64,000 nt of DNA from Lineus longissimus (Eukaryota; Nemertea; Pilidiophora; Heteronemertea; Lineidae): contig NC_088317.1 of NCBI RefSeq assembly GCF_910592395.1, positions 10,728,001-10,792,000 on the forward strand, written 5' to 3'. Positions 2,796 to 63,226 of the stretch are shown here, piece after piece. The notes under the pieces were generated by a model. It was not told the origin of the DNA. It made no database searches and saw only the letters and a program-made list of their open reading frames with translations. The number at the start of each line of letters is the position of its first letter. The first letter of the stretch is position 1. Both the position numbers and the translations under genes were made by a program.

Positions 2796-5155
2796 CGTCG
2801 TCCGTTAGCAGGGCACGTTTCGTAACTGTTAGAGCTATTGAGTTGAAACTTGGTACACATGTACCCTTATGTAATGACACCTTGGAGACCAAGTTTCGGT
2901 CCGATTCGTTACATGGTTTGGCCACCAGGGGGCCAAACGTTAAAAGTGAAAATATGCAATATCTCCCTTAATAGTAGTCGGGAAATTTTGAAAAAAATAT
3001 GGTAGGTACTTCTAGCAAATGTGCATCATATATCCTCCGGGTTTTTGATTTGACCTCCTTTTCAAGGTCACAGAGGTCAAATGGTGTAAATTGGCCGTTA
3101 GGATGTAACGATGGCACGTTTCTAAACTGCAATGACTATTGATACCAAATTTGGTACACATTTACCCCTTAGTCAGGTGATCTCAGGGACCGAAGTTTGG
3201 TCCAATATGATTCACCACTTGACCACCAGGGGGCAAAATCCAAAAACCTTAAAAATGTGATTATTCCTTAACTTCTTGCCCGATTGCCACCAATTTGATA
3301 TCATGGGTACATCTAACCACCTTACAGTATATGTCACACAGGTTTTTAATTTGACCTTCTTGTCAAGGTCACAAAGGTCAAATGGCGTAAATTCGCCGTC
3401 AGGCCGTAACTATGGCACGTTTCTTAACTGCAATGACTATCGATCAAAAATTAGGTACACATGTACCCCTTGGTCAGGTGATCTTAGGTACCGAAGTTTG
3501 GTGCGATCTGATTTGCCGTTTGGCCTCCAGGGAGGGGGCCAAATCCTAAATTCTTCAAAATGCCATTATTCCTAGTAATGACTTGCCCGATTGGCACCAA
3601 TTTTATATCATAGGTACATCTAATTCTAACAACCATTCAATGTGTCACCCGGGTCTTCTTTGATTTGACCTACTTTTCAAGGTCACAGAGGTCGAATGTT
3701 ATGTAAATTGGCCATTTTGGGGAAATTGTAATTGCTTGGACCTACATCAAACCTAACACTACATGACACAATACCATGCTCTTTATCCATCTTTCCTCCA
3801 CATGAGGTGAGCACAATGGCCCTGGCCATTTCATTTAAAAAAAATGGTGCCCTGGTCATTCTTTCCACACCTATTCTCTGACACTGCCACCCCGATTCTT
3901 CTTATTTTCCAGGACGGAAGGAAGACGTTTTCCAGGGGAGACTGATATTCTACCTAGTCATTGACGGGGAGGTAGTAAACGACCATCTCAGAACTTTCAG
4001 AGAGGCTCTCGTGGCCCTGTTCACCTCATTTTATGCCTTTGCATATAAGTACCCAAAAGAATCTGAAGTAACGATGGAATTCCTTCAAAGGTAAGCATTG
4101 TATGTCTTAGGGTTCAAGTACAGTTGAATTTCGATGAAAAGAAATGTTTGGAAATTGATTGGAAACTGGTCATTGACACTGACATTGCCAGCTGGTGTAA
4201 TACTTAAATTACTTGTGAATAGGAACCAGCAGACATTTTTGTATGGGCAGGTTTCGGTTTCTTTCTTTCCGTGGGTTCAGGCCAAAAAATTCTCTGAAAT
4301 AATTGAAAGTACTGTAAGGCGTAATATTGATGCAGGAGAGATGATTTAAAGCCCAAATTGATGTTTGCCAGGTTTTTAGGACATGTTGGTTGCAACAGGT
4401 TCAGGCAGATGATTTCTCAAGACAGGAATAGTCTTGTATTGTAATGGTAGTGTAAGGCAATACGTGAGAGTACTGGACCTTTGCCTTCTGGTGATACGGC
4501 CAACCTTCCAGACACAGAGCAACTCATAAACTTACATTTTGAGACTTTCAAAATTAGCGTGCAAGAAATTGACTGATTTCCTGATTGATATCTTGCTGAA
4601 CACTTTTGATAATCTCACAGATGGCACCAACCTAAACTATTTATATGGAGGATGATGGTCACAGAACTTTATTCCTTGCGATCATAAGAAGCTTTCTTGG
4701 CCACCAGCAAGGCCTAACTAGTCCCCCCCCCCCCCACCACACACGTCATGTGAATAGGCGTGCTTCATTTGACTACCAAACATTTGATTTCTCATTGCAT
4801 CAAAGGAGAAAACACAGACTGTGTCACCCAATAATATTGCTAGGCTTGATGTGGCGCATTTGAAAATAATGACATTGGTGGACCTGCCCATACAAAAATG
4901 TCTGCTGGTTCCTATTCACAAGTAATTTAAGTATTACACCAGCTGGCAATGTCAGTGTCAATGACCAGTTTCCAATCAATTTCCAAACATTTCCTTTCAT
5001 CGAAATTCAATTGTGGTGTCAACAGCATAAAACAGCAAAAAAATGTCTATGATACACAAACCAAACAGAAGTACAAAACGCCAATTCCACCAAAGATAGT
5101 AACATTTCTTGCTGCCATGCTGCAATTCGAAAGTGACTGGAATGCCAAGGAGTGA
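1128..5155 (+). CDS. 3' exons of an uncharacterised SAMD3-like family gene
   Basis: Exons read from splice signals: 1128-1653 (acceptor TTTCAG, donor GTAAGT), 2408-2477, 3913-4090, and a terminal exon ending at the stop at 5155. The phases agree for the first three. Exon 1 holds YGC, WKP, an acidic PDGET stretch and WPYLF; exon 2 ends with the PFIAILG strand; exon 3 carries VIDGEVV, ALFTSFYAF and MEFLQ. The terminal part has PPKIVTFL followed by QFESDW. This order matches, from memory, the long uncharacterised metazoan proteins often called SAMD3-like; their function is unknown. 5' exons, including any SAM domain, lie outside the window. Oddity: a fold-back element (4121-5013) lies directly against the last exon, so its acceptor is unclear. 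A rival last exon is 5418-5505 (acceptor TTTCCAG, stop TAG). An A-type element sits in the intron between 2478 and 3912. Confidence 0.65.
2694..3832 (+). mobile_element. A-type repeat element, copy 2, full length
   Basis: Full-length about 1.14-kb non-autonomous element within an intron of the SAMD3-like gene. The 5' end begins with a hairpin (AGCTCACCTC, TTAGCA loop, GAGGTGAGCT), then a run of about 15 GTC units at 2750-2795. The body is about three ~300-bp monomers, each with a CCACCAGGGGGC-like core (2919 and 3216 good, about 3520 degenerate) and an AGGTCA direct repeat (about 3063, 3363 and 3680). The 3' end has GAGGTGAGC, the inverse of the 5' end, then the hairpin AATGGCC-CT-GGCCATT. 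There is no open reading frame beyond the arginine-run artefact. The ends recall Helentron/HINE or pearl-type elements; that class assignment is an inference. Confidence 0.85.
4121..5013. mobile_element. Fold-back element with ~130-bp inverted ends
   Basis: The left arm 4121-4251 is the near-perfect reverse complement of the right arm 4882-5013 (both ends contain TTGAATTTCGATG or its complement). The roughly 630-bp interior has no coding signal and includes a C-rich run at about 4722. No clear target duplication was found. It lies between exon 3 and the terminal exon of the SAMD3-like gene and may contribute the terminal exon's upstream sequence. Confidence 0.75.
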
Positions 5156-9220: not shown

Positions 9221-10293
9221 TTTTAGAGCTTATCCCATACCGTGGCGTCCGTCGTCGTCGTCGTCCGTTAGCAGGGCACGTTTCGTAACTGTTAGAGCTA
9301 TTGAGTTGAAACTTGGTACACATGTACCCTTATGTAATGACACCTTGGAGACCAAGTTTCGGTCCGATTCGTTTCATGGTTTGGCCACCAGGGGGCCAAA
9401 CGTTAAAAGTGAAAATATGCAATATCTTCCTTAATAGTAGTCGGGAAATTTTGAACAAAATATGGTAGGTACTTCTAGCAAAGGTGCATCATATATCCTC
9501 CGGGTTTTTGATTTGCCCTCCTTTTCAAGGTCACAGAGGTCAAATAGTGTAAATTGGCCGTTAGGATGTAACGATGGCACGTTTCTAAACTGCAATGACT
9601 ATTGATCCCAAATTTGGTACACATTTACCCCTTAGTCAGGTAATCTCAGGGACCGAAGTTTGGTCCAATATGATTCACCACTTGACCACCAGGGGGCAAA
9701 ATCCAAAAACCTTAAAAATGTGATTATTCCTTAACTTCTTGCCCGATTGCCACCAATTTGATATCATGGGTACATCTAACCACCATACAGTATATGTCAC
9801 ACAGGTTTTTAATTTGACCTTCTTGTCAAGGTCACAGAGGTCAAATGGCGTAAATTGGCCGTCAGGCCGTAACTATGGCACGTTTCTTAACTGCAATGAC
9901 TATTGATCACAAATTAAGTACACATGTACCCCTTGGTCAGGTGGTCTCAGGTACCGAAGTTTGGTGCGATCTGATTTGCCGTTTGGCCTCCAGGGAGGGG
10001 GCCAAATCCTAAATTCTTCAAAATGCCATTATTCCTAGTATTACTTGCCCGATTGGCACCAATTTTATATCATAGGTACATCTAATTCTAACAACCATTC
10101 AATGTGTCACCCGGGTCTTCTTTGATTTGACCTACTTTTCAAGGTCACAGAGGTCGAATGTACTGTAAATTGGCCATTTTGGGGAAATTGTAATTGCTTG
10201 GACCTACATCAAACCTAACACTACATGACATAATACCATGCTCTTTATCCATCTTTCCTCCACATGAGGTGAGCACAATGGCCCTGGCCATTT
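9221..10293 (+). mobile_element. A-type repeat element, copy 3, lacking the 5' hairpin
   Basis: Near-identical to the copy at 2694-3832 through body and 3' end, but the first 20-base hairpin segment is precisely missing: TTTTTAG joins directly to AGCTTATCCC. The GTC run is shorter (about 9246-9266). CTCF-like cores are at about 9383 and 9683; DR3 motifs at about 9525, 9825 and 10140. It ends with the hairpin AATGGCC-CT-GGCCATT, where a B-type element begins with no host sequence between. Confidence 0.85.
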
Positions 10294-10373: not shown

Positions 10374-11712
10374 ATCCTAACAGTGGCACGTTTCTTAACT
10401 GCTAGGGCTATGAACTTGAAACTTTGTACACAGAATGCCCTAGGTCAGCTGACCCTTGACACTGATTTTCGGTCCGATCTGATTCTCTGTTTGGCCACCA
10501 GGGGGCCAAATGTCGATATCTAAAAAGTGTCATATCTCGCTTATTAGTGACTTGTTTTCGATAAAACTTTTGTTGTAGGTACTCATAGCAAATATACATT
10601 TTATATTATACGGGTTTTTAATTTGACCTTGTTTTCAAGGTCGCAGAGGTCATATGGCGTAAATTGGCCATTAGAGTGTAAATTATGGCACGTTTCTTAA
10701 AAACTAAAGCTATGAACTTGAAACTTGGTACATATAACCCCCTATATCACATTGCCTCTGGTGCTGAAGTTTGGTTCGATCTGATTCCTAACTTTGCCAC
10801 CAGGGGGCCAAAAGTGGAAATCTAAAAAGTGTGATATCTCGCTTATAAGTGACTTGTTTTCAATAAAATTCTTATGGTAGGTACTGTTAGGAAGAATACA
10901 TCACATGTTATACGGGTTTTCAATTTGACCTACTTTTCAAGGTCACAGAAGTCATATGGCGTAAATTTGCTGTTAGAGTGTAAACTATGGCACGTTTCTT
11001 AACCAGTAAAGCTATGAACTTAAAAGTTGGTGCATATAACCCCCTACATCAAATAACGTCTGATGTCGAATTTTGGCCTGATCTGATTCTTTATTCGGCC
11101 ACCAGGGGGCCATAACGTAAAAGGAAGAAGTGCAATATCTTGCTTATTTGAGTGAATTCTTTTCGATAAAATTTTGTGGCAGGGACTCCCAGCAAGGATA
11201 CATCACAGTTCCTATGATTTTTGGATTTGACCTCCTTTTCTAGGTCACAGAGGTCAAATGGCGTAAATTGACCGTTTGAGTGTAACTATGGCACGTTTCT
11301 TAACTGCTAAAGCTATGAACTTGAAAGTTGGTACATGTAACCCCCTACATCAGATAATCTCTGACACCGAATTTTGGCCTGATATGATTCTTGATTTGGC
11401 CACTAGGGGGTCAAAACTGAAAAAGTAGGACGTGCAATATCTCGCTTATTAATGACTTTTTTTCGATGAATTTTTTATTGCAGGGACTCTTAGCAATCAC
11501 ACGATATTGATCTTATTGATGTCATAGACAATTATTGGTTGGATCATAAACTTATATATACTGCCCTGTCTTATTACTTGACATCAATACACATCTAAAA
11601 AAGTCTTCATGCCTGATTGTGTTCACCATATTCACCTCTAAACTAAGCATGATCCTGCCTACTAAATGATGTATACGGTGAGCACAATGGCCCCTGGCCG
11701 TTTCATTTCTCA
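10294..11712 (+). mobile_element. B-type repeat element, full length
   Basis: Begins TTGGCTCACCGTA, then GTCTATATGATAGCGC and a run of about 12 GTC units (10334-10371). The body is four tandem monomers with a regular ~300-bp period: CTCF-like cores at about 10492, 10795, 11096 and 11396, and AGGTCA direct repeats about 140 bp after each of the first three. The 3' end has TACGGTGAGC, the inverse of the 5' GCTCACCGTA, and the hairpin around AATGGCCCCTGGCC, then GTTTCATTT. No protein is encoded. It abuts A-type copy 3 head to tail. Confidence 0.85.
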
Positions 11713-14482: not shown

Positions 14483-15491
14483 GGCATGCAATAGCAGAAT
14501 AGAGAGCGCCGGGGTTTTGACGTCAGGTGAGACGTCAGGTGAGACGTGAGAGGGGACCTAAGGGGAGTCGTTGTACAGCAACAAATAAGAAAGAACAAAC
14601 ACGTATTATTTTGTATTCGCTCATTTATTTATTTATTTACTCGACGGAACAGGTTGTGACATCATATGGGAAATAAATTTACACATGTTGTATTTTCATA
14701 AAGGGCATGTAAATATTGACAACATAAATCCTGTAACAAAGTAAATAGATTTAAAGCTTGTGCAGTAACGCCCCTTTGATCTGCAGTCCAACATGGCTGC
14801 CAACCGAAAAAATGACACTTCAACGCCATACTATGACTGATGCTGATTATGGTAGGCCTATGCTTATGGCTGCAACGAGCGATCAGGCAGATTCGCACGA
14901 TGCACAAAATGAAAGCTCGTTGTTGATTGGTTGACTATAGCCCTGCCCAGTAGAATCGACGAACAAAGCTTTCCAAATTACACAACACTCCGGATTATGA
15001 ACTAACGCGGTAGAATATTGACATGACGATATTGATATTGACATTACGGAAATAATATCGACAGTACGGAAATAATATCGCCATCACATTATTAGAGAGT
15101 TGTGATAACCTTGGAGCGCCATACAAACGGGCCACAATCGATCCAAAATGAATGATTTGGGAATGCCATTACCAGCAGCAGATAGCCAAATGCATCTAGT
15201 TTATTTATTGACCGGTATTATTTACCCGACCGTCGGATCTACTGTAATGTATAGATAAGCTTTTAAAATAGAGCAGGCCCAGACTCCCTTAGATGACGTT
15301 AGGAGACCCCGGACATCCGGGACAGGAGAACGTGTGAGCAATTCTAGCAGGTCGTTATATATCAGAATAAAGTCATTCAAATTGAACCAGAAGACTTATA
15401 TGAGTATTTCATACAGCAGGATTCAAAGGAATGTAACATGGTGCCGTTAACCGGGACTTTATTCGATAGTAGCGAGTTTCCGCATCGCTTA
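14483..15491. other. Unassigned non-coding region
   Basis: Contains a short ATTT run (about 14615-14640) and a few repeated words (ACGGAAATAATATCG near 15045-15080). No coding exon, RNA gene or transposon was recognised. The TTA at 15489-15491 is the left target duplication of the next element. Confidence 0.35.
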
Positions 15492-16369
15492 AGCCTGCAC
15501 CACACGGTGAAAATTTGCGTGATGCAAGTGACACGCGTGCATGTTGCGACAGGCAAATTCTCACTGTGTGGGGTCGTTTTTTGCTGCGTATCTTCCCTCG
15601 CGAGTCGAGACGCAGCCGATCTAGCATGTTTGATATTTTCTCGACACGCGAGGAAGTTAATCACCGTGTGGGGGCTACCTGCAGCAATGTTGCGCGAGTT
15701 CGACGAATCACAACAAGCAGATCGGTCACATGATTTATAGGTCAGTCACATGATACCAAAATGGCAGCGCCCGGGAACTGTCAAATCCTATGAGAAGTAT
15801 TATGGACCAAGAAGACCAAATTGCCCTTATTCTCCTGCCGTTACTCCATCTGTTCCTCGACCCGCACTCTGTGGAACTGGCGATACTTCATGGGGTCCTC
15901 CTCCCGCAATTCAGCAATTAGATTTGCATGGCCCCCTTATCCTCTCTTCTCTGAATCCATGGCCTTGTCCAAGGACTACGGTCCACGCAGCGCCGCCTCC
16001 GCCGCCGCCTCCGACGGAGTAACAGCAGGAGAATAAGGGCAATTTGGTCTTCTTGGTCCATAATACTTCTCATAGGATTTGACAGTTCCCGGGCGCTGCC
16101 ATTTTGGTATCATGTGACTGACCTATAAATCATGTGACCGATCTGCTTGTTGTGATTCGTCGAACTCGCGCAACATTGCTGCAGGTAGCCCCCACACGGT
16201 GATTAACTTCCTCGCGTGTCGAGAAAATATCAAACATGCTAGATCGGCTGCGTCTCGACACGCGAGGAAGATACGCAGCAAAAAACGACCCCACACAGTG
16301 AGAATTTGCCTGTCGCAACGTGCACGCGTGTCACTTGCATCACGCAAATTTCACCGTGTGGTGCGGGCT
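15492..16369. mobile_element. PIF/Harbinger-like fold-back element with transposon-ORF remnant
   Basis: Two arms of about 350 bp (15492-15846 and 16018-16369) are near-perfect reverse complements; termini begin AGCC(T/C)GCACCACACGG. The element is flanked by the 3-bp duplication TTA (15489-15491 and 16370-16372), as expected for PIF/Harbinger. The ~170-bp loop, read on the minus strand, encodes LIAELREEDPMKY and then FHRVRVEEQME before a stop. This resembles the segment upstream of the catalytic domain in HARBI1-like proteins (from memory). It is non-autonomous, and the arms could form a very long hairpin. Reading frames in the arms are mirror images of one another and are not genes. Confidence 0.8.
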
Positions 16370-16370
16370 T

Positions 16371-16394
16371 TACGATTACGATTACGATTACGAT
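16371..16394. repeat. GATTAC short tandem repeat
   Basis: About four units of TACGAT/GATTAC directly follow the right end of the Harbinger-like element. A similar pair of opposed GATTAC runs lies near 36697-36745. Confidence 0.8.
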
Positions 16395-21790: not shown

Positions 21791-24700
21791 ATGGATTCTA
21801 CCAGTAACGATAATGATACAGGTAATAGCATGGTTAATGAAGATTTAGCAGGTATCAATATTATTGTGAAGTTTTCTTTACATAATCGACATTGGCGGCG
21901 TTTGGCCAACCAAACCAGCCAGCCCCTTTCGGTACAGCCTGCATACAATGTCAATAACATAGGCCTATGCACATGATGCATCGAATGTAACTGAAATGAA
22001 ATGCATGAACAGCAGGCAGCTGCTGTGCAGACTGACAGAGGTATAAAGTTATTTATGGACCCTTGACATTTAAAAATAAGCGGAATCTTGATTTGTTTGC
22101 TTGTTTCACCTAGTATAGGAGATGGGTAGGCCTATTACTAGTATTGGTATTATTATGTTATGTTAGGTGAGCACACTCACTGACACTCACACTCACGGGC
22201 CATCATGGCCATGGCCATGCAGACGCAGTGACAGTGTGGGCTATTATAAATCACATAAACTGTGAGATGCAAACTTGTGATATCGCGATATGGGTAGGTT
22301 ATCATTAAGTGCATCTCACGGTTTATTATAAGCCCACAGTGTGACGACAATCACAATTGAATAATGTCGATGCCAAAATCATGAAATGCGAGTATCGTAT
22401 AGCAAGGCTATAGTTTTGTCCAAGTTGTTATGTAATCTTGGAAATCTGGACTTTTACTACAGCAAATACATTACAGTCATAGGCTTACTCTGAAAAGGTT
22501 CCCTTCAAACTTGGTACATGTGCAAACAAAATTGACATTTGGATTGTGAAAAAAAAGGATGCAACTGTGACTCTTTCCCGTTTCCCTCTCTCTCTGCAAC
22601 CAAACAATGGAGAGAATAAAGTTTTAATCCTTCTCGTATTGTTCTGGACACTCTCCACGCATGCGAGGAGTTTGGTCAGGGTCTTTCTCGAAACTGTCTA
22701 TTGTACTGCCACAGCGTGAGAAGATGATGGTATGGTACAAATGTAGATAGCCATGGTATCTAGCACTGCATTTACAGAAGCTTAGCAGCCCACCAGGCCT
22801 TCATGTAGGCCTACCGGTACATTGATTTAGTTAATGAATTATGAGTGACTTCCTCACGCACGCTGTTATTGTAACTGAACCACTGAGGACCAGGAATGGT
22901 TATTAAAAGTGGACCCACAATGATTATGATGACAGTACAGTACTGCCACTTTTTAAAGGGTAATTAAATAAGCGCCATGTCTGCATGACAGAAATAGTAA
23001 AATGGGGATACAATACAAAGCAGACCTGGCGATATATTATCGTGCAATGTTAGCATCATTGGGAATTGCCATTCTAAATTTTAACTTCTTCATCTTTGCG
23101 AAAATTCTGGCTGCATAGCAGCCATCTTTGAAATCTTTTTTCTGATTTCATTGCCAATGGTTGTATGCAGAGGTACAAATAATACCCAAAAGATTGAGGA
23201 GCAGATACACTGCCACTAAAAGTGACTGACAATAATCTTCAGATTGTGGCATGTGACCTCTTTGCTAGATCGTCTGACCCAGATTTGTTTGCCTTCTCTT
23301 TTACAGGCTGCACCAGCAAGTAGGCCTGAGGCAACTTCTCAACCTGTGAACAATAGGAAGTCAGTCAAAGCTAAGGTATGTGTGTGACCAAGTTTCCATA
23401 ACCGAATTCTTTTTAGACCTTGAGATTGTTCAGACTTAACTTGTCATGTCCAATCTGTCATCATGACTTTATGGGAAAACCTGTGGCATGTTTGTCAAGG
23501 TTCCGCAGCAAAACATCCCCATAGCATAATGCTGCCACCTCCGTGCTTCACAGTCAGTACGGTGTTCTTTGGATCCCCCCCCCCGTTTTGCCAAACGTAC
23601 TGCTGGTAGTTGTGGCCGAAGACTTCGCTTTTAGTCTCATCAGACCAAAGAACACTCCTCAAGAAGGCTCTGTATTTGCCCACATGTTCTCTCGCAAACT
23701 TCAGCCTTGCTTCCCGGTAGCGTTTTTGAAGTAAAGGCTTCTTTCTTGCCCTGCAGCCTCGTAGTCCACTACGATGCAAGACCTTCTGGACAGTGGACAG
23801 TGACACATTTGTCTTTGTAGCTTCTAATTCCTGGCAGAGGTGTTTCTTGGTCGTCTCGGGGTTAATGTGCACCTTTCTAACCAATGTGGGCTCATCTTTG
23901 GCTGTCAGCTTGCGCTTTCTTCCTGACCTTGGTAAGGTTGCTGTTGTCCCTGGGTCGTCCCTGTACTTCCGCTTTATTGTCTGAACTGACGCCCGTGGCA
24001 TATCAAGCTGCTTGAAAATGGCTGTTAGTGAAGTACCAGACTGGTTCAAGTGGACAGGCGACTCTATCAGATCTTGAGAGTACTCCTTTGACTTCCCCAT
24101 GATGGCTCTAAGCTGGCAAATTACCTGAGCAGAAACCCAGTCCCTTTTATACTGCTACAGTGGCGCCACCTGAGCTATGACATAATTATGATGGTCAACA
24201 GGTAGTTGAGACAAGATAAAAGCCATTGTATAACATATTTGCCCACCTCAAGGCCAAACAACTAGTAGATAAGGTAGGTGTATGTAAACTTATGACACTC
24301 TGAAATATGCATTGTTTTCAAATAGAGCTCATAAAAACAATGAAATTAATGAAACAGAAGTATGTTTTTTAGTTGATGACGAGATGTGATGATAGACTTC
24401 CTGTAAACTATATACTATTCCCGCGTTCTGTAGTTGCAGAGAAAGAGACAGGGTTATATCATCCTTTGAATTGTATGTAAACTTTCGAGCACGACTGTAC
24501 TCTCTAATTTTTGCCTTGGCCTCCAGAAATAATAGTGTATTTTCAAATTCTTTCTTATCAAACCTGAGTGTGTGTTATTATTGCACCACCAATATCCAAT
24601 TTGATAACCAGTACGCATGTACCCAATGGTTTGGTTGTCTAATTTTCTAATTGTAATTTCTAATTCTAGTGTAAAAGTCAATAGTTCCCTTTTTTGTCAT

Positions 24701-27159: not shown

Positions 27160-28290
27160 CTTAAAAAAATGTCACATCCCACCTGAATACGCCGAACGTA
27201 TGGAAATACCGTCTCTGAAGACATTATCCAGCATGGTCGGTTTACTTTATTCGACACAATGTCACATTCAACCTGAATACGCCTGATCGTATGGAAATAC
27301 CGTCTCTGAAGACATTATCCAGCATGGTCGGTTTACTTTCGACACAATGTCACATTCAACCTGAATACGCCTGATCGTATGGAAATACCGTCTCTGAAGA
27401 CATTATCCAGCATGGTCGGTTTACTTTCGACACAATATCACATCCCACCTGAATACGCCTGATCATATGGAAATACCGTCTCTGAAGACATTATCCAACA
27501 TGGTCGGTTTACTTTCGACACAATGTCACATTCAACCTGAATACGCCGGACCGTATGGAAATACCGTCTCTGAAGACGTCATCCAGAATGGTCGGTTTAC
27601 TTTCGACACAATGTCACATTCAACCTGAATACGCCGGACCGTATGGAAATACCGTCTCTGAAGACGTCATCCAGAATGGTCGGTTTACTTTCGACACAAT
27701 GTCTCATTCAACCTGAATACGCCTGATCGTATGGAAATACCGTCTCTGAAGACGTCATCCAGAATGGTCGGTTTACTTTCGACACAATGTCACATTCAAC
27801 CTGAATACGCCTGATCATATGGAAATACCGTCTCTGAAGACGTCATCCAGAATGGTCGGATTACTTTCGACACAATGTCACATCCAACCTGAATACGCCT
27901 GATCATATGGAAATACCGTCTCTGAAGACGTCATCCAGAATGGTCGGATTACTTTCGACACAATGTCACATCCAACCTGAATACGCCTGATCATATGGAA
28001 ATACCGTCTCTGAAGACGTCATCCAGAATGGTCGGTTTACTTTCGACACAATGTCTCATTCATCCTGAATACGCCTGATCATATGGAAATACCGTCTCTG
28101 AAGACGTCATCCAGAATGGTCGGTTTACTTTCGACACAATGTCTCATTCATCCTGAATACGCCTGATCGTATGGAAATACCGTCTCTGAAGACGTCATCC
28201 AGAATGGTCGGTTTACTTTCGACACAATGTCACATCCAACCTGAATACGCCTGGTCGTATGGAAATAATGACTCTGATAATATCATTCAG
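27160..28290. repeat. 88-bp minisatellite, about 13 units
   Basis: Units contain ATGGAAATACCGTCTCTGAA, at 27200, 27291, 27379, 27467, 27555 and every 88 bp to 28171, with a diverged last unit at 28259. Left-hand units read ACATTATCCAGCATGG, right-hand ones ACGTCATCCAGAATGG, so variants are clustered. Degenerate units flank it (from about 27040 and to about 28470). Since 88 is not divisible by three it is not a coding repeat. It lies between the chromodomain gene and the KDZ-like gene. Confidence 0.95.
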
Positions 28291-40791: not shown

Positions 40792-41328
40792 GGGGTGGTT
40801 CAGGAGGACCAACTGAGTTACCCCAAGAAACTGTTAGAAAAGCTGAAGATCCTTCTGAATTTTTAGGTACTGAGTCTACAGCCATCCAGTTAATAGCTAA
40901 CAATTATGCAAAAGGCTATCTTGATAGTAAAGAGGGTATTGTCTTATTGTTTGATTCAGGAGCAACATTTAGTTTTATCTCAGGTTCTTGTATACAAAAA
41001 TCAAGGTTTCTTAGTAGTTTACCAGCATTTGATATTGAACAACGTTGTTTTAAAATTGGTAATGGAGAATATTTACTTACTAACAAGGCACTCTCATTTG
41101 AAGTTTCTATTCAGGGTTGTAGGTTAAGAATATATGCCTGTATCGTGGACAACCTGACTGGCCCAGATGTGTTGGTAGGAGCTTCAACTTTGTCAGCCTT
41201 GAATGGTTCATTACATTTTGCCACTCGTACTTTTACTGTAAGACCAAAGAAGGTTTGGTTTACACCTGTAAACCGTAATATCATAAAACCCGGAGAGACA
41301 AAACATGTGCTGGTGAAAGGTAGGTTGC

Positions 41329-42188
41329 TGTTACGGGGTCATCCCAATTTGTAAAGCAATCCCATCCTCTATGACTCCACTGATGTAATATAATTTCTTT
41401 GTATAAATAACAAATTAAACTGTTATCTACTACATCAGCCTCAGGTACTTCATGTACACAACCAAATTACCCTTTAAGAAACCACTATCGGACAAGCTTG
41501 TAAAACCTGTAAGCGTTATGGCCAAACAACTCCTATCTCCAAACCATTCCTAATTTTAGCCAAAAGCCAATGTCAAAATCTGGTCATCTTGCCATAGTCA
41601 GATAATTCCTAGTGCAATTGTTGGAGCTAACATAGTCAACGCTTTCTCTAAAACATCGTAAACACCTGTGTAAGCTGATGGTACAAGGTAGATAACATCT
41701 CGAGCTTTAACTTCCAGACCACGATAACCTTGGGAAACCCTAACTATTCAGAATTACAGAAAAGTGCAATGACGCACACTCTACGGGTTTGAGGATACGT
41801 TCGTTCGGTATTTATTGATTTTGATACCTAAATAAGGGTGCGTTTTTAGAACGAACAGCTCTCAACGAAGTAGCAGCAATAGTTTTAACTCCGCTCCCGG
41901 GCGTAACAGTCAGCTTCCGAGCAGAGCTCATCATCTAGCCGCAGCGCAATAGTCTTAACTCCGCTCCCGAGCGTAACAGTCAGCTTCCGAGCAGAGCTTA
42001 TCATCTAGCCTCAGGGCAATAGTTTCAACTCCGCTTCCGAGCGTAACGATCAGTCAGCTTCAGAGCAGTGACTATATTCTAGCTTCAGGGCTAAACATTT
42101 GACCAATTCGTCGTGGAAGTAAGCTCACACCAGTATTGTGATATCATCTGTCATAAAATCTGCGAAACTGAACAGTCTTGTGTGGACA
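41329..42188 (+). repeat. Left LTR-like end with three internal ~70-bp units
   Basis: About 860 bp starting TG and ending CA. Contains three tandem units (about 41878-42090) built on CAATAGT, AACTCCGCTCCCG, CGTAACAGTCAGCTTCC and GAGCAGAGCT. Confidence 0.75.
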
Positions 42189-42279
42189 TTATTTGCGACC
42201 CGTGACATAGTGGAGTGAGAGGAAGTGAGGGTCTAATCTAAACAGGACTTGGTAAATATTGACATTGTTTTCTTTTAAA

Positions 42280-43380
42280 ATGGATGAAATACAAGTGCAA
42301 CTTGATCAAATGAGAGACAGAATGGATGATGCATTAATCGCTGCCATACCAGGAGGAGTAGAAAGTTTACGCCCTCAGTTTTTCTATGGACATAGCTCTG
42401 AAAACCCGGAGGAATTTCTAACTAAATTCCAGGATTTTATGATTGCCACTCAAATAAGGCCGGTTAGATGGTGCCAGCAGTTTTGCCTATATTTGCACGG
42501 TCCAGCGTTCCAGTGGTACCGGGAATTGGACGAGGACTTGAGAGGCGACGGAAATTTTGATGAAATCAAACGTGTTTTTCTGGAAAGATTTAACAACGTA
42601 CAAGCACAGTATGTGCAGAGGATGAGATTTCATGATTTCAGACAGGGTCCTAACCAACCATTGGACCAATTTCTGGACGCTTTTACTACTGCTTGTGCTC
42701 GCCTGAATGTCCCGGCAGAGGAACGCATAACCATGTTCATAAGGGCGTAAAAACCAAGGCTACGATCCGCTGTTGTGAGGCATCAGCCAGATACCCTGAA
42801 CGATGCCATCGCCTTGACCCGCACAGAGGAGGTGTGTTTGGAAATGGAAAGTGATGCCGCAACTGGAGATGGCGCCCTGACAGCATCCGTATTACAAGGT
42901 AACAATACGTCCATCCAAAAACGGCAAGAACTGGTATCACACGCCGAATTTGAACGAGAAAAGGCAGAAATTACTAGGAAGATCGAGGATATGACGCTTT
43001 CCTTGAAGACCGAGATTAGGGACTCTTTCAATAGATTAATGGAGCAAACACCTCGAGCCCCACAATACAATTCGGAGACGTCAACGAGGCCTTTATGCAC
43101 TTATTATAAGCGTTCAGGACACTATTACGACCGTTGTTTCCGCAACCCACAGCAGAACCAGGAAATGGACAGTGGCAGAAGACAGGACAAATACTGCAGG
43201 AATCATGGCAGTTGCAATCATACCACAGCAGAATGCCGACAAGCAGGAGTGTACAGAAGAAGAGGACCAGGCACCCATGGATTCGTCCCAAACTCAGGAC
43301 CGAGTTCAGCTCCAGCCAGACAATACGGAGCAGCAAACCAAACGGGAGGCAATTTCAACAGACAGTCGGGAAACCAGTAG
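42280..43380 (+). pseudogene. Inner element: Gypsy-type gag with one internal stop
   Basis: The start at 42280 gives a capsid-type domain (FYGHSSENPEEFLTKF, GPAFQWYREL, FLERFN, FHDFRQG, LDQFLDAF, ARLNVPAEERITMFIRA), then a stop TAA at 42748-42750, and the frame continues in register to 43380. A coiled coil is followed by two zinc-knuckle-like motifs. The first, CTYYKRSGHYYDRC, has lost its second cysteine; the second, CRNHGSCNHTTAEC, reads C-x2-H-x4-H-x4-C. No protease signature follows in 43400-43830. Confidence 0.8.
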
Positions 43381-43847
43381 AGCGGGATACGCGAGGACAG
43401 GTCTATCGGTAGGATCCAACCCGCTATGAAGACCACAATGGACAAGATTTACAGATGGTTTTAACATGGCAAAATAAGGTAATAGGTTGTCAAGCAGAGA
43501 CGGACGCCTTGGTCGACAGAATCCTAAATGGAACGCTGTCCACTTTGGCCAGTCAACATCCAAATGTATTTTCTGTATTACCTGTGCATGAATGTGTTAT
43601 GAATTATGTTGATGAACCAATAGACAGTATTGACTATGAAATAGAACCAATAACATAATTAAAATTGGCAGAAGTTCCTGTTAGTGCGAATCCCATTGAT
43701 GAGTGTGAGCAGAAAATTGTACCCACGTACGTGAAAGAAAATGATCTAGAAGGTGTGCCGGCTCAGGCCGAAGAAATAGTTAAAATACCAGTACTCAGCG
43801 TACAAGTAATTACTAGTACATATGAAAATGTCACGGGTCGCAAATAA

Positions 43848-44637
43848 TGTCCACACAAGACTGTTCAGTTTCGCAGATTTTATAACAGATGATATCACAA
43901 TACTGGTGTGAGCTTACTTCCACGACGAATTGGTCAAATGTTTAGCCCTGGAGCTAGAATATAGTCACTGCTCTGAAGCTGACTGATCGTTACGCTCGGA
44001 AGCGGAGTTGAAACTATTGCGCTGCGGCTAGATGATGAGCTCTGCTCGGAAGCTGACTGTTACGCCCGGGAGCGGAGTTAAAACTATTGCTGCTACTTCG
44101 TTGAGAGCTGTTCGTTCTAAAAACGTACCCTTATTTAGGTATCAAAATCAATAAATACCGAACGAACGGATCTTCAAACCCGTAGAGTGTGCGTCATTGC
44201 ACTTTTCTGTAATTCTGAATAGTTAGGGTTTCCCAAGGTTATCGTGGTCTGGAAGTTAAAGCTCGAGATGTTATCTACCTTGTACCATCAGATTACACAG
44301 GTGTTTACGATGTTTTAGAGACAGCGTTGGCTATGTTAGCTCCAACAATTGCACTAGGAATTATCTGACTATGGCAAGATGACCAGATTTTGACATTGGC
44401 TTTTGGCTAAAATTAGGAATGGTTTGGAGATAGGAGTTGTTTGGCCATAACGCTTACAGGTTTTACAAGCTTGTCCGATAGTGGTTTCTTAAAGGGTAAT
44501 TTGGTTGTGTACATGAAGTACCTGAGGCTGATGTAGTAGAAAACAGTTTAATTTGTTATTTATACAAAGAAATTATATTACATCAGTGGAGTCATAGAGG
44601 ATGGGATTGCTTTACAAATTGGGATGACCCCGTAACA
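43848..44637 (-). repeat. Right LTR-like end, inverted, with two internal ~70-bp units
   Basis: Reverse complement of the left end. It is about 790 bp; the 70-bp length difference equals exactly one of the internal units (two here, three on the left). Confidence 0.75.
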
Positions 44638-45590
44638 GTTGCCTAAGCTATTAAAAAATTCTGAGATCCTTCTACATTCTGGCAAATATTTGACTAGATT
44701 TTGTCCGTCTCGTATGCTTGTAAAGCTCAAGAAAGGTACGTGTACCGTTCAAGTCACTAATACCGGGAGAAAGGCAATTTCCCTAAGTTCCGATAAACCA
44801 GTAGCATTTACTGATTTGGGCTAGTTTTCTCATACTTTCAGGCAAATCCCACAGGAGATGTTACAGACACATTTGACAAGAGCTTCTTGTGAGTCCGATG
44901 TCCAGTGGAAAACCTGAAAAAGGATCCCCACCTTGAATGTACTGATTCCCTTTCCAGAAAGTCACCTGAAGATATTTCAAAAGAAACCATTGATCTTGAT
45001 TCAGATGATTGTATTCTGGACGCAGAAGGGAAACGAAGAGTAAGAGATATGATTCTGAAGCATAAAGATGCATTCAGTCTTTATGGTGAGATAGGACAAT
45101 GTCCAAACATTGAAATTGACATTGAGCTGAAGGACAAAACCCCGTTCTATATAAGATCATATCCTCTTCCAGATGTACAGAAACCCATAATGGATAGAGA
45201 ACTACAGAAGTTGGCGAAGTAAGGGATTCTCAAGAAAGGTTGTTCTGCTTACAGTTCACCATGTTTGTTAATTAAGAAGCCCAATTCCGATCAATTTAGA
45301 TTTGTTTCAGATTTTAGGTTTCTCAACCGGAAAGTTGTGACAGCTCAACAGAATTATCTTTCATTGCAGAATGTCCTTTCTAGGTTAGGAAAATCAGAGT
45401 ATCGAGTTGTTTCCGTAATAGATTTGAAATCTGCTTTCCATACTCTACCTCTTTCAGCCAAGTCGCAAAGATACACAGGAATTTGTCCCTATCCTGGCAT
45501 ACCTATGTATATGTACCAACGGTTACCAATGGGAATGAATATGTCGCCAGCCAAGTGGCAACAGCAGATTAACTAGTATTGGGCAATTCG

Positions 45591-47290: not shown

Positions 47291-48629
47291 ACCCAAACTA
47301 ACAGCGAATATATATTCTTAAGATCCTTTTCTTGACCTCTGATGAGTTAATTTTGTCTGATGCAGTGTTTCAACACAAATTTGAGGGCGATTACAATCAC
47401 GAAAAAATCACACTCACCCAGTCTAGAATGCGCAGACGAAATGTCTGTTGGCTCCTCCATGTAGCGGGTATCCTCCCACCTGTTCAGGTCGGGGACAGAT
47501 CAACGTTGAGCAACTTGCCTAATCGGTAAAAACGCGGGAGGCAGTGCTATTACCGGAACGGTTCAGAACCGGCGATTTTCATCAAAAATCACCCGAAAAC
47601 TAAAAAATTAAGCAACGGCTGCAAAAATAAAGTACACGTTGTTCGTTAGCAGGTTATGAAACGTAACCTAACCAAATTTCAGGTCGTTCCGTGCGGCAGT
47701 TTCGGAGATACGTGTCGAAAACCACATCCCTCGGGTCCTGGCGATCGGCTCAGTAAAAACAATAGACCATATCCACGGAGTTGTGGATATGGTCTAATGA
47801 TATATTGGCTAACATTCCTGATAAAGATAACTTTTGTGTTGCTATACATGATGATTGCTTGATTTTTAGCCGTAATGAGTCTGAGCACATGCAGCACCTT
47901 CAACGTATTCTACAAGTTTTTCAGGAACATGGATTATAGCTGTCAGCCCAAAAATGCCGTTTGTTTCGATCACGCTGTACTTACATTGGTCATGAAATTT
48001 CCATTTCAGAACCAAAGGGGATTGTTCAAGTCCGAGCAATGATGGACAAGTGTGCAGCAATTAGAAACATGAAGAAACCCTGTAACCAGAGGGAGGTCAG
48101 ACGCTTTATTAGTGCAGTTACATTTCTTTCCATGTATTTACCAAAACTCCAGATTCTATTAAAACCACTACATTCTCTTTCTAGGAAAAATCAAAGGTTT
48201 CTTTGAACTGAGGAACATGAGGACAGTCATGAGAAGATCAGAGAACTTCTTTTATCCCCTCAAATCTTATGTGCCCCTCAAGGCACTGGTGATTTCCATT
48301 TGTACAGTGATACTTCTAGGTCCGCCACAGGTTCAGTGTTAATGCAAGACATTTGTGGACAACAGCACGTTGTTGGTTATTACAGCAAAATCTTGCCCAA
48401 TGCCGCACAAAGGTACAGTGTAAGTGAGCTTGAATTAACATGTCTTCTAATCAATGTTACAGCTTGGAAATATTACTTACAATTTACAACATTTCACTGC
48501 TATGTTGATCACTCGTCTCTAGTTCAGATGTATAAGTCAAAACACCAGCCACCTACTCTTAGGTTGGAAAAACTATGGGAGCGACTGTCTCAGTATTGAT
48601 TTGATATTTCTTACTGTAAAGGATCCGAC

Positions 48630-57987: not shown

Positions 57988-59266
57988 TTGACGGCCCGTC
58001 ATATCCCAAACCAGTCTGAGCTAAACCGAGTTCTAAAAATCATAAAACGGAAAGTTATCAGAAATTATAATTTACCGTTTGAAGCACAACAATTCGGGGC
58101 AGCCCAGCAGTCTTCTCCAAACTTCAAACCTATTTATGATTATCTTGCCCATCAAATTCTACCAAAGGACAAGAAAGCAGCGAGAGTGATAATGCTTAGA
58201 GCAGAACAATATCTGTTGTGTAATGACATTCTTTTCAGAATATTCTTTCCGTCAAATAGCGATCATTTCTGTTTTCAGCTTGTGATTCCAGACCAGTTCA
58301 TTGATCCATTGATCGCCAAGTATCATGATTCTCTATTGAGCAATCACCAGGGTTGTGTTAGAACTTACCTTACAATGAGGAAATTGTTCTATTTTCATGG
58401 CATGTATCAACGTATCGTGTTTTACATCCAGTCTTGTGCCCAATGTCAGCAATTCAAAGGAAGAGCTGAAACACTGAGGCCATTCCATGACCGAATTTCA
58501 TTGGATTATTCACCATTTCAGACTATTTCTTTAGATTTCAAGAAGATGGTAACATCAAGATCAGGATATTCTTGGCTAATGGTTATAACTTGTGCTATAA
58601 CTAGATATACTGTATGTGTTCAAATGAAGACACTGGATGCTACAGTTGCAGGAACACCAGCAGAAAACCCAGAATGAGAAGAGCTCACAACGATTGTCAA
58701 AGAGTTCAACATATGCACAAGGACAGCATGTCTATTTGCATAAACCCAGTAGTTCTAGTCTTACATCAAATGCTAAGAAATTCACTGCTAAGTATGTAGG
58801 ACCATTTGTTGTTCATCGGGTGTTAGATCCTAGTCATGTATTACTTGCAGATCTAAAAGGTAGAATATTGCGAGATGTGTTTCATGTCAACCGTATAAAA
58901 CCGGCTTTTATGAGGGCAAGTGAGTCTAGAAATATTTCTAATTTGCAGAAGTTAAGGGAAGCGTTGGCCATGAAAACCCCACAGCAGAATGCTGAAGAGG
59001 ACCAGTGTCATTTCAACAGCGAGGACAGACCTGCATATCAGTTTGACTTTGTTGATGAAACAGGGAAAGAAATAAGTGATGATTGTTCTTGTACTGATAA
59101 TGATATCATGGCTGGCACAGTGCCAGCCCATCGATCTAGACGCAAGGGCCCAACGCCCCGCGTAGCGGCAAAAAAGCGAAGCTGGCGAAACATTTATAAC
59201 GGGTCACCTTCACTTATTATTGGACTTATAGCGCATTTACGGGGTTGCAACTATTTTGCTTTATAG
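57988..59266 (+). pseudogene. Outer Gypsy-type: integrase, core partly deleted
   Basis: The zinc-binding HHCC domain is present (YHDSLLSNHQG through CAQCQQFKGR, near 58320-58460), then the first catalytic Asp (ISLDFKKM) and SWLMVITCAITRYTV. After residue TLDAT (about 58643) the frame runs out; a second frame takes up the C-terminal SH3-like domain (FTAKYVGPFVVHRVLDPSHV, then VFHVNRIKP). The core between, with the other two catalytic acids, is missing. The tail (EEDQCHFNSEDRPAYQFDF) runs to a stop at 59264-59266. No 3' LTR was recognised downstream. Confidence 0.85.
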
Positions 59267-61652: not shown

Positions 61653-63226
61653 CGTCGTATCCTAGTTCAAAAACAGTGGCACGTTTTTTAACCGCTACGC
61701 CTATGAACTTAAAACTTTGTACACATGACCCCCTAGGTCAGATGACCCGTGACACTAAATTTCTGTCCGATCTGATTCTCTACTTGGCCACCAGGGGGCC
61801 AAATGTGGATATCTAAAAAGTGTGATATCTCGCTTATTGGTGACTTGTTTTCGATAAAACTTTTGTGGTAGGTACTCATAGCAAGGATACATCATATATC
61901 TTACGGGTTTTTAATTTGATCTACTTTTCAAGGTCGCAGAGGTCAAATGGCGTGAATTGGCCGTTTGAGTGTAACTATGGCACGTTTCTCAACCACCAAA
62001 GCTATGAGCTTGAAACTTGGTACATATAACCCCCTATATCAGATAACCTCTGGTGCTGAATTTCAGCCTGATCTGATTCTTGACTTTGCCACCAGGGGGC
62101 CAAAACAGAAAAAGTAAGAAGTGCAATAGCCTGCTTATTAGCAAATTGTTTTTGATGAAATTTTTATGGCAGGGACCCCTAGCAAGGTTACCTCAGATGT
62201 TGCACAATTTTTCGGATTTGACCTACTTTTTAAGGTCGCAGAGGTCAAATGGCGTAAATTTGCCGTTTGAGTGTAACTATGGCACGTTTCTCAACCGCAA
62301 CAGTTATGAACTTGAAACTTTGAACAAATGACCCCCTAGGTCAGTTGACCTTTTACACTGAATTTTGGTTCGGTCTGATTATTGACTTGGCCACCAGGGG
62401 GCCCAAACTCAAAACGTGTGATTTCTCGCTTATTACTGATTTGTTTTTGATAAAAGTTTCATGGTAGGTACTCCCAGCAAGGATACATCACATATCTTAC
62501 GGGTTTTTGATTTGACCCACCTTTCAAGTTCACAGAGGTCAAAGTTGAAAACTTTACCGTTCTTGGTACGTTTTGTCGTTGTTCAATGTAAAGAGTTTTA
62601 ATTTTGTGTAATGATGCATCTAAGAAGCCACTATTTGTATGCCAAGTTTCAGCCAGATCGGAATTCAAATATGGCCGAAATTGCATGTTTTGTGGGTTTT
62701 TCCTCGTATTGTGGCAATCAAAAGGTCGTGAGTTCAAACCCCGGTCAAGGACAGCCAAAAATATTTTTCATCTTTTCCTTTTTTCTTTTCTGAGTTCTAT
62801 CTTACATTTTCTTCATTTTTTGATTTATTTGGTGCCATAGATTTAATTAGGCGGCCATCTTGGAAATCGTTTTTTGCCGATTGCTGTAGTGTAACGAGTG
62901 ATGAAATTGTTATGGTCAGGTGGATGTGTCTACATATCACCCTGGTTTGTTATTTGACCTACCTGTCAGGGTCACTGAGGTCAAAGTTAAAAATATATTC
63001 GCCATTGTCATGGAGTGGCACGTTTCTTCACTATCATTTTCACCTAGACTCTACAAGCTTGGAACCACAAGTCTCGGATTCACCACTTGGCCAGGGCCGG
63101 CTCTGAACTGGTCACAGATGCATGTATAAATTATGAGAGGCCTACATACTGTAGCACTTTCTGTAACTGTCTACTAAAAATACTTACGGTGAGCACAATG
63201 GCCCCTGGCCGTTTCATTTCTTATCA
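61572..63226 (+). mobile_element. B-type repeat element, ~1.65 kb
   Basis: Begins TTGGCTCACCGTA, GTCTATACGATACCGC and about 10-12 GTC units (61611-61650). Three standard monomers follow with CTCF-like cores at about 61786, 62087 and 62389 and AGGTCA direct repeats near 61930, 62231 and 62525. A diverged part runs from about 62540 to 63180 and includes a tRNA-like B box. It ends TACGGTGAGC, the AATGGCCCCTGGCC hairpin, and GTTTCATTT. Confidence 0.85.
62722..62745 (+). other. tRNA-like B box in the B-type element
   Basis: GGTCGTGAGTTCAAACCCCG resembles the RNA polymerase III B-box consensus GGTTCGANNCC. No matching A box or cloverleaf was found, so this is probably a SINE fragment rather than a tRNA gene. 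Confidence 0.35.

What the first reader, a model, noticed from the sequence alone, without database searches (positions are those of the whole stretch)
41324..44642. Retrotransposon with inverted, not direct, LTRs and a clean 5-bp target duplication
The 3,309-bp insertion in the Gypsy protease/pol region begins TGTTACGGGG, ends CCCCGTAACA and is flanked by GTTGC on both sides; the interrupted frame resumes in phase. Its 860- and 790-bp ends are LTR-like but reverse complements of each other, and each also carries the primer-binding-site-like GCGACCCGTGACAT. Only gag lies between. Both ends are therefore the same (U3-side) terminus. The target duplication suggests integrase joined two U3 ends. 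A model is that cDNA folded back and self-primed during reverse transcription, giving a palindromic product that still integrated; another is a stable lineage of inverted-end gag elements moved by helper enzymes.
Basis: partly seen in the sequence, partly recalled or inferred. Interest (0 to 1): 0.85.

Follow-up and report, generated by a model that had tools for sequence, protein, structure and literature searches.

The report
Retrotransposon integrated with inverted LTRs
A small retrotransposon inside an older one has its two end repeats pointing in opposite directions instead of the same way, most likely because a misjoined DNA copy was inserted cleanly by the normal integration machinery.

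Summary
The 3,309-bp insert (41329-44637) has GTTGC on both sides, and its ends are inverted LTRs of 879 and 809 bp (800 of 809 aligned bases identical) with gag between. LTR copies elsewhere in the same 391-Mb genome correct the interpretation: GCGACCCGTGACA is not a primer-binding site but the native 3' (U5) terminus of the LTR. Both arms are thus LTRs with exact termini at both tips, sharing a private 184-base deletion and private substitutions. In a tree of 15 LTRs they pair (100/99) at the distance of the two LTRs of one ordinary copy. They look like the two LTRs of one element, one of them flipped. In the 4 gag-bearing copies whose 3' LTR could be seen, that LTR is direct. Best explanation: an aberrant cDNA, in which the U5 end of an LTR was joined to an internal site (autointegration, end joining or template jump) with loss of protease and polypurine tract, was integrated through two U3 ends. 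Main rival: a nested reversed insertion plus a deletion at the similar LTR tips. I found no second inverted copy. No reads were available, and the search for an autonomous partner did not complete.

The parts
41324..41328 (+). left target-site duplication GTTGC
   Evidence: relatives show 5-bp (C3, C16a, C12) or 4-bp (C5, C4_15, C3b, C19a/b, C9a) duplications
41329..42207 (+). left LTR, 879 bp, TGTTACGGGG...CCCGTGACA; lacks 184 bases near its U5 end compared with copy C17
41876..42047 (+). 70-bp tandem repeat inside the LTR, 2.5 units; the right arm has one unit fewer
42208..42279 (+). leader after the LTR; a candidate primer-binding site would start with TGG at 42211 (no tRNA identified)
   Evidence: TAGTGGAGTGAG follows the 5' LTR also in C12, C15 and C9a
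42280..43380 (+). gag reading frame with one in-frame stop at 42748; capsid part related to Retrotrans_gag and Arc
43381..43828 (+). post-gag internal sequence ending ...CATATGAAAA; in copy C9a the protease region follows here
43828..43829 (.). aberrant inner junction: internal ...GAAAA joined to the exact U5 terminus of the inverted LTR (TGTCACGGG...)
43829..44637 (-). right LTR, 809 bp, inverted, same 184-base deletion; its outer end is the U3 end CCCCGTAACA
44638..44642 (+). right target-site duplication GTTGC
40947..41328 (+). interrupted host Gypsy protease region (left part)
   Evidence: PF08284 E 3.5e-05; frame resumes in phase

Best explanation
This is one copy of a Gypsy-type element, from a family whose readable copies carry gag and protease, that was integrated from an aberrant cDNA. 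Reverse transcription made both LTRs (shown indirectly: the arms behave as the two LTRs of one element). Before integration the U5 end of an LTR became joined to an internal site just after gag (...CATATGAAAA), so that this LTR lies inverted, and the stretch from there to the polypurine tract (1,263 bp in copy C9a, with the protease) was lost. [quoted passage not shown] The result is a linear DNA with a U3 end at both tips. Integrase, probably supplied by a helper, inserted it into an older Gypsy with a normal 5-bp duplication (duplication shown; use of two U3 ends inferred from the termini). Afterwards the arms diverged by 9 substitutions and one repeat unit. It has no 3' LTR in the right orientation, so it should be a dead end for normal reverse transcription (inference).
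For: Exact U3 tips next to GTTGC on both sides and host frame in phase. The inner end of the right arm is the exact native LTR terminus, where LTRs elsewhere also end. Both arms lack the same 184 bases; 22 of 22 other LTR copies read at that point keep the native sequence (19, 3 more, which scanned the 61 loci held), and none of the matches outside the window runs past the deletion point. Tree of 15 LTRs: the two arms form a clade, support 100/99, path 0.0155, much like the 5'/3' LTR pair of the direct-LTR copy C12, 0.0153; 6 private shared substitutions, against at most 3 in 78 other pairs. 3' LTR direct in 4 of 4 gag copies where it was seen. No polypurine tract at the right arm (no run of 9 or more purines in the last 86 bases before the junction), while C9a, C12 and C4_14 have GCAGAGGGGGA before the 3' LTR.
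Against: No reads, no empty-site allele and no second example. Which joining reaction occurred cannot be read from the junction (0 to 2 bases of ambiguity). The structure could also arise by nesting plus deletion. The cDNA model needs several events in one molecule: misjoining, loss of the protease segment and release of the LTR at its U3 edge. That integrase can pair two U3 ends is recalled, not taken from a call. No integrase source was found; the search for a partner element did not complete.
Confidence: 0.62

Rival explanations
1. Chromosomal route: an ordinary copy stood at GTTGC; a second copy inserted in reverse inside it at GAAAA; a deletion then ran from the U3 tip of the reversed LTR to the 3' tip of the outer LTR, guided by the similar tips (CCCCGTAACA against CCCGTGACA).
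For: The LTR tips share 8 of 9 bases (CCCGTRACA; sequences), which would put the deletion point at the tip and spare GTTGC; the inner junction has the exact terminus that a normal insertion leaves.
Against: The second copy would have to carry the same 184-base deletion, found in none of the 22 other LTR copies read, and share 6 private substitutions, unless gene conversion between the arms made them alike.
Confidence: 0.17
2. Fold-back self-priming: a plus strand stalled after gag folded back and copied its own LTR.
For: Gives two U3 ends and a gag loop; compatible with the tree.
Against: Gives no reason for the inner boundary to lie exactly at the LTR terminus; the stalled end ...GAAAA could pair with only about one base next to the copied stretch (sequences).
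Confidence: 0.08
3. A mobile lineage of inverted-end gag elements, moved by a helper integrase like a DNA transposon with terminal inverted repeats.
For: The termini fit the TGTNR pattern that Ginger and Gypsy share; the family copies read show no clear reverse transcriptase, so a helper would be needed anyway.
Against: Among the 48 LTR matches listed, which are a lower bound, no other two face each other within 10 kb; gag copies with a visible 3' LTR are direct.
Confidence: 0.06
4. Assembly artefact.
For: Inverted repeats are error-prone in assembly; no reads were available.
Against: The arms differ by 9 substitutions and a 70-base unit, the flanks carry a target duplication and the host frame continues in phase.
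Confidence: 0.04

Closest known systems
Ordinary direct-LTR copies of the same family in this genome (C12, C9a)
   Same: LTR termini, leader, gag, 4- or 5-bp target duplication; matched stretches roughly 93-96% identical
   Different: their LTRs are direct; sequence of the protease region and a polypurine tract are present
DIRS-1 type retroelements
   Same: inverted terminal LTRs
   Different: DIRS use a tyrosine recombinase and no canonical integrase (PMC5633606, passages); here TG...CA ends, a 5-bp duplication and no internal complementary region
Ginger1/Ginger2 DNA transposons
   Same: terminal inverted repeats starting TGTNR; Bao et al. suggested that Ginger1 TIRs might derive from two LTRs in opposite orientation (PMC2836005, passages, Discussion)
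   Different: no transposase gene here; the repeats are whole LTRs of 0.8-0.9 kb against about 40-270 bp in Ginger1; no family of inverted copies
Locust Gypsy-25, described in passing as having 'an inverted pair of LTRs'
   Same: of the papers I opened, the only one that claims inverted LTRs for a Gypsy (PMC8786324, abstract, outline and passages)
   Different: the terms for target duplication, gag and primer binding do not occur in it; its LTR is 217 nt
Autointegration products of retroviral and Ty1 cDNA (recalled; the Ty1 paper I asked for is not held)
   Same: joining of the U5 end to an internal site gives an inverted LTR
   Different: recalled as circles, not as integrated copies

Membership tests
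Ty3/Gypsy LTR retrotransposon | LTR with TG...CA ends and a short target duplication | tested here: met
Ty3/Gypsy LTR retrotransposon | gag related to Gypsy/Arc capsid | tested here: met
   a gag piece of copy C9a also matches Ty3_capsid just under its cut-off
Ty3/Gypsy LTR retrotransposon | direct orientation of the two LTRs | tested here: not met
   met in relatives C12 and C9a
Ty3/Gypsy LTR retrotransposon | polypurine tract before the 3' LTR | tested here: not met
Ty3/Gypsy LTR retrotransposon | protease, reverse transcriptase, RNase H and integrase | tested here: not met
   no such domain in the four pieces scanned between the arms; in relatives a weak protease match and a crude motif test without a convincing RT
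DIRS | no target duplication | tested here: not met
   GTTGC on both sides
DIRS | internal region complementary to the tips | tested here: not met
   longest exact match of the 40-base tip in the spacer is 8 (7 for the reverse complement); 200 shuffles: mean 7.5, maximum 10
DIRS | tyrosine recombinase | tested here: not met
   no such domain in the pieces scanned
Ginger-type DNA transposon | inverted ends of the pattern TGTNR | tested here: met
   TGTTA... at both tips; pattern
Ginger-type DNA transposon | integrase-like transposase and several copies with inverted ends | tested here: not met
   no such domain in the pieces scanned; no second inverted copy in the listed matches

The most novel reading that the evidence does not exclude
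A single misjoined cDNA with two U3 ends can be integrated by a Gypsy-type integrase, which turns an LTR retrotransposon into an element with long terminal inverted repeats in one step. That is the kind of link that the Ginger1 hypothesis needs; and if it is transcribed, its inverted LTRs would make a long hairpin RNA that could silence the parent family.
Probability: 0.15. Interest if true: 0.8.

Novelty: new variant of a known kind. Interest (0 to 1): 0.52.

Why it matters
If the cDNA route is right, this is a natural genomic example of integration through two U3 ends. It gives a concrete one-step route from a retrotransposon with direct LTRs to an element with terminal inverted repeats, which Bao et al. 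2010 proposed only as two LTRs that happen to flank an integrase in opposite orientation. It also shows how the end of an LTR can be misread as a primer-binding site when LTR boundaries are taken from a single deleted copy.

Tried and rejected
Rejected: my own first model (plus-strand strong-stop DNA with its primer-binding site mispriming on gag), because the supposed primer-binding site turned out to be the LTR terminus. Rejected: DIRS. Led nowhere: protein searches with two gag pieces (14 and 110 candidates, none under the E-value limits of 0.001 and 0.01); viral and prokaryote contigs; a motif search in viral contigs gave 3 contigs whose listed ORFs look like phage, taken as chance; Rfam and tRNA scans of the window were empty; folding of the junction strands showed nothing; PHROGs gave nothing for the first gag piece; PDB and Pfam gave nothing for the post-gag part. 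Papers: ten searches brought up no report of an inverted-LTR insertion with a target duplication; only open-licence papers were searched, and of the listed papers I opened six (passages or sections only). Corrected: a count of 13 private shared substitutions was inflated by a misaligned tail; 6 replaces it. Not done: a genome-wide pattern search for the deletion junction and a DNA search for an autonomous partner; the server did not answer.

Full report
What is there. The insert at 41329-44637 is 3,309 bp long, starts TGTTACGGGG, ends CCCCGTAACA and is flanked by GTTGC. The two ends are inverted copies of each other: 800 identical bases, 9 substitutions and one 70-base gap in 879 columns; another alignment that places the gap differently counts 12 differences in 791 columns. 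The gap is one unit of a 70-bp tandem repeat. Between the ends lie gag (Pfam Retrotrans_gag, E 5.3e-11; capsid part related by sequence to Arc, E 1e-05) and about 450 bases of post-gag sequence without a recognised domain. gag has one in-frame stop, at 42748. The host is an older Gypsy: protease at the insertion site (PF08284), then a reverse transcriptase piece at 45265, RNase H at 48300 and an integrase zinc finger at 57988 (whether the last belongs to the same copy was not tested). Its frame resumes in phase when the insert and one GTTGC are left out.

Relatives in the same genome. The window lies in contig C10 of a 391-Mb assembly. The LTR query gave 48 matches, the internal query 11, the window's own included (both lists are lower bounds). 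I fetched 20 stretches around the best ones. In 11 LTR copies with both termini the length is 975-1,141 bp; C4_14 (951) and C12b (989) are irregular, C9a's 5' LTR, C19a and C19b are interrupted, and C11 and C16b have no end in the expected place. The LTRs end in GACCCGTGACA or a close variant. Copies with a matching flank right behind that end: GCACG (C3) and CCTAA (C16a), 5 bp; GTAC (C5), GTAG (C4_15), CATA (C3b) and CTGC (C19a and C19b, with the same flanks, so perhaps one event), 4 bp; C17 and C12b show none. Full copies with direct LTRs: C12 with TCAGA on both sides and C9a with CCAT. C9b and C4_14 show a direct 3' LTR, C15 only a 5' LTR, C6 no LTR in the 8 kb read. So in 4 of the 6 other gag copies a 3' LTR is seen, and in 4 of 4 it is direct. 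By coordinates, one other pair of listed LTR matches lies in opposite orientation within 20 kb (C4, 11.869 and 11.883 Mb, 14 kb apart), both incomplete and with no gag match in the stretches read; I take it as two separate insertions.

The correction. The internal region starts TAGTGGAGTGAG in C12, C15 and C9a as in the window. The window's LTRs lack 184 bases near the U5 end compared with C17, which had hidden this. Both arms carry that deletion. One search read 19 other LTR copies at this point (16 in the list of LTR 3' ends plus the 5' LTRs of C12, C15 and C9a), and three more (C10 at 7.94 Mb, C1, C4 at 12.24 Mb): 22 of 22 keep the native sequence. C4_14 is irregular there and could not be used. 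The remaining listed matches are fragments that do not reach the point or were not fetched.

One element or two? In a tree of 15 LTR sequences (C4_14 dropped) the two arms form a clade (100/99) with path 0.0155, close to the two LTRs of C12 (0.0153). They share 6 private substitutions; the largest number in 78 other pairs is 3, in C12's own LTR pair and in the C9 pair. Several inner forks of that tree are poorly supported (2 of 12 inner branches starred), but the arm pair is one of the two. The arms therefore look like the two LTRs of one reverse-transcription product.

The junction. Relatives read ...CATATGAAAACGGGTCC (C9a, C9b, C4_14) or ...CATATGAAAATGGGTCC (C12); the window reads ...CATATGAAAA followed by TGTCACGGG, the exact U5 terminus of an inverted LTR. 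In C9a, 1,263 bp follow before the 3' LTR, with an aspartic protease (PF13975 E 1e-4 and three related models, all under their curated cut-offs) and the tract GCAGAGGGGGA. A crude motif test for reverse transcriptase in C12, C9a and C4_14 gave one match, in C9a, which I do not find convincing; no profile search of whole copies was made. I read the family as a non-autonomous gag-protease element that needs a helper; the search for an autonomous partner did not complete.

Mechanism. Shown: inverted LTRs with exact tips, two U3 ends outward, target duplication, common origin of the arms, absence of the protease region and polypurine tract. Inferred: that the flip happened in cDNA. The U5 tip joined to an internal site is what one-ended autointegration would give (recalled for Ty1 and retroviruses; the paper I asked for is not held). 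End joining of broken cDNA or a template jump to the end of strong-stop DNA gives the same sequence. HIV papers, read in passages, report 26 of 88 proviruses with asymmetric LTRs and mark some inversions in a figure legend (PMC9278108), and mispriming at two-LTR junctions (PMC5618025), so aberrant cDNA that integrates or circularises is known. The rival is a nested reversed copy followed by a deletion between similar LTR tips; it needs the second copy to share the private deletion.

Known kinds. DIRS elements also have inverted LTRs but use a tyrosine recombinase (PMC5633606, passages); the duplication and the lack of an internal complementary region speak against DIRS. Ginger transposons have TGTNR inverted ends, and their describers suggested an origin from two opposed LTRs (PMC2836005, passages, Discussion section). 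A locust paper mentions a Gypsy with an inverted LTR pair in passing (PMC8786324). My ten searches brought up no inverted-LTR insertion with a target duplication; PMC6934838 on bivalve TRIMs (passages) concerns direct repeats.

Verdict. It is a new variant of a known kind, most likely a single event.

Noticed in passing
15484-16376: Foldback element with 367-bp arms (358 of 367 columns identical) and a 162-bp spacer (15851-16012); similar edge sequence also sits inside an LTR copy on C11, so it seems dispersed.
   Followed up: partly
2796-3623, 9259-10175, 10384-11496, 61701-62543, 1-426: Tandem arrays of a 301/302-bp satellite-like unit, two of them 98% alike and about 6.46 kb apart, one piece inverted at the window start.
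   Followed up: no
27168-28267: 12.5 copies of an 88-bp tandem repeat.
   Followed up: no
L045, L047, L048, L049: The element's family seems to be gag plus protease without a clear reverse transcriptase, and shows both 4- and 5-bp target duplications.
   Followed up: partly
L059:2277-3541: LTR copy with several more units of the 70-bp repeat, so the repeat number varies between copies.
   Followed up: no
23495-24100 (-): Tc1/Sleeping Beauty type transposase fragment.
   Followed up: no
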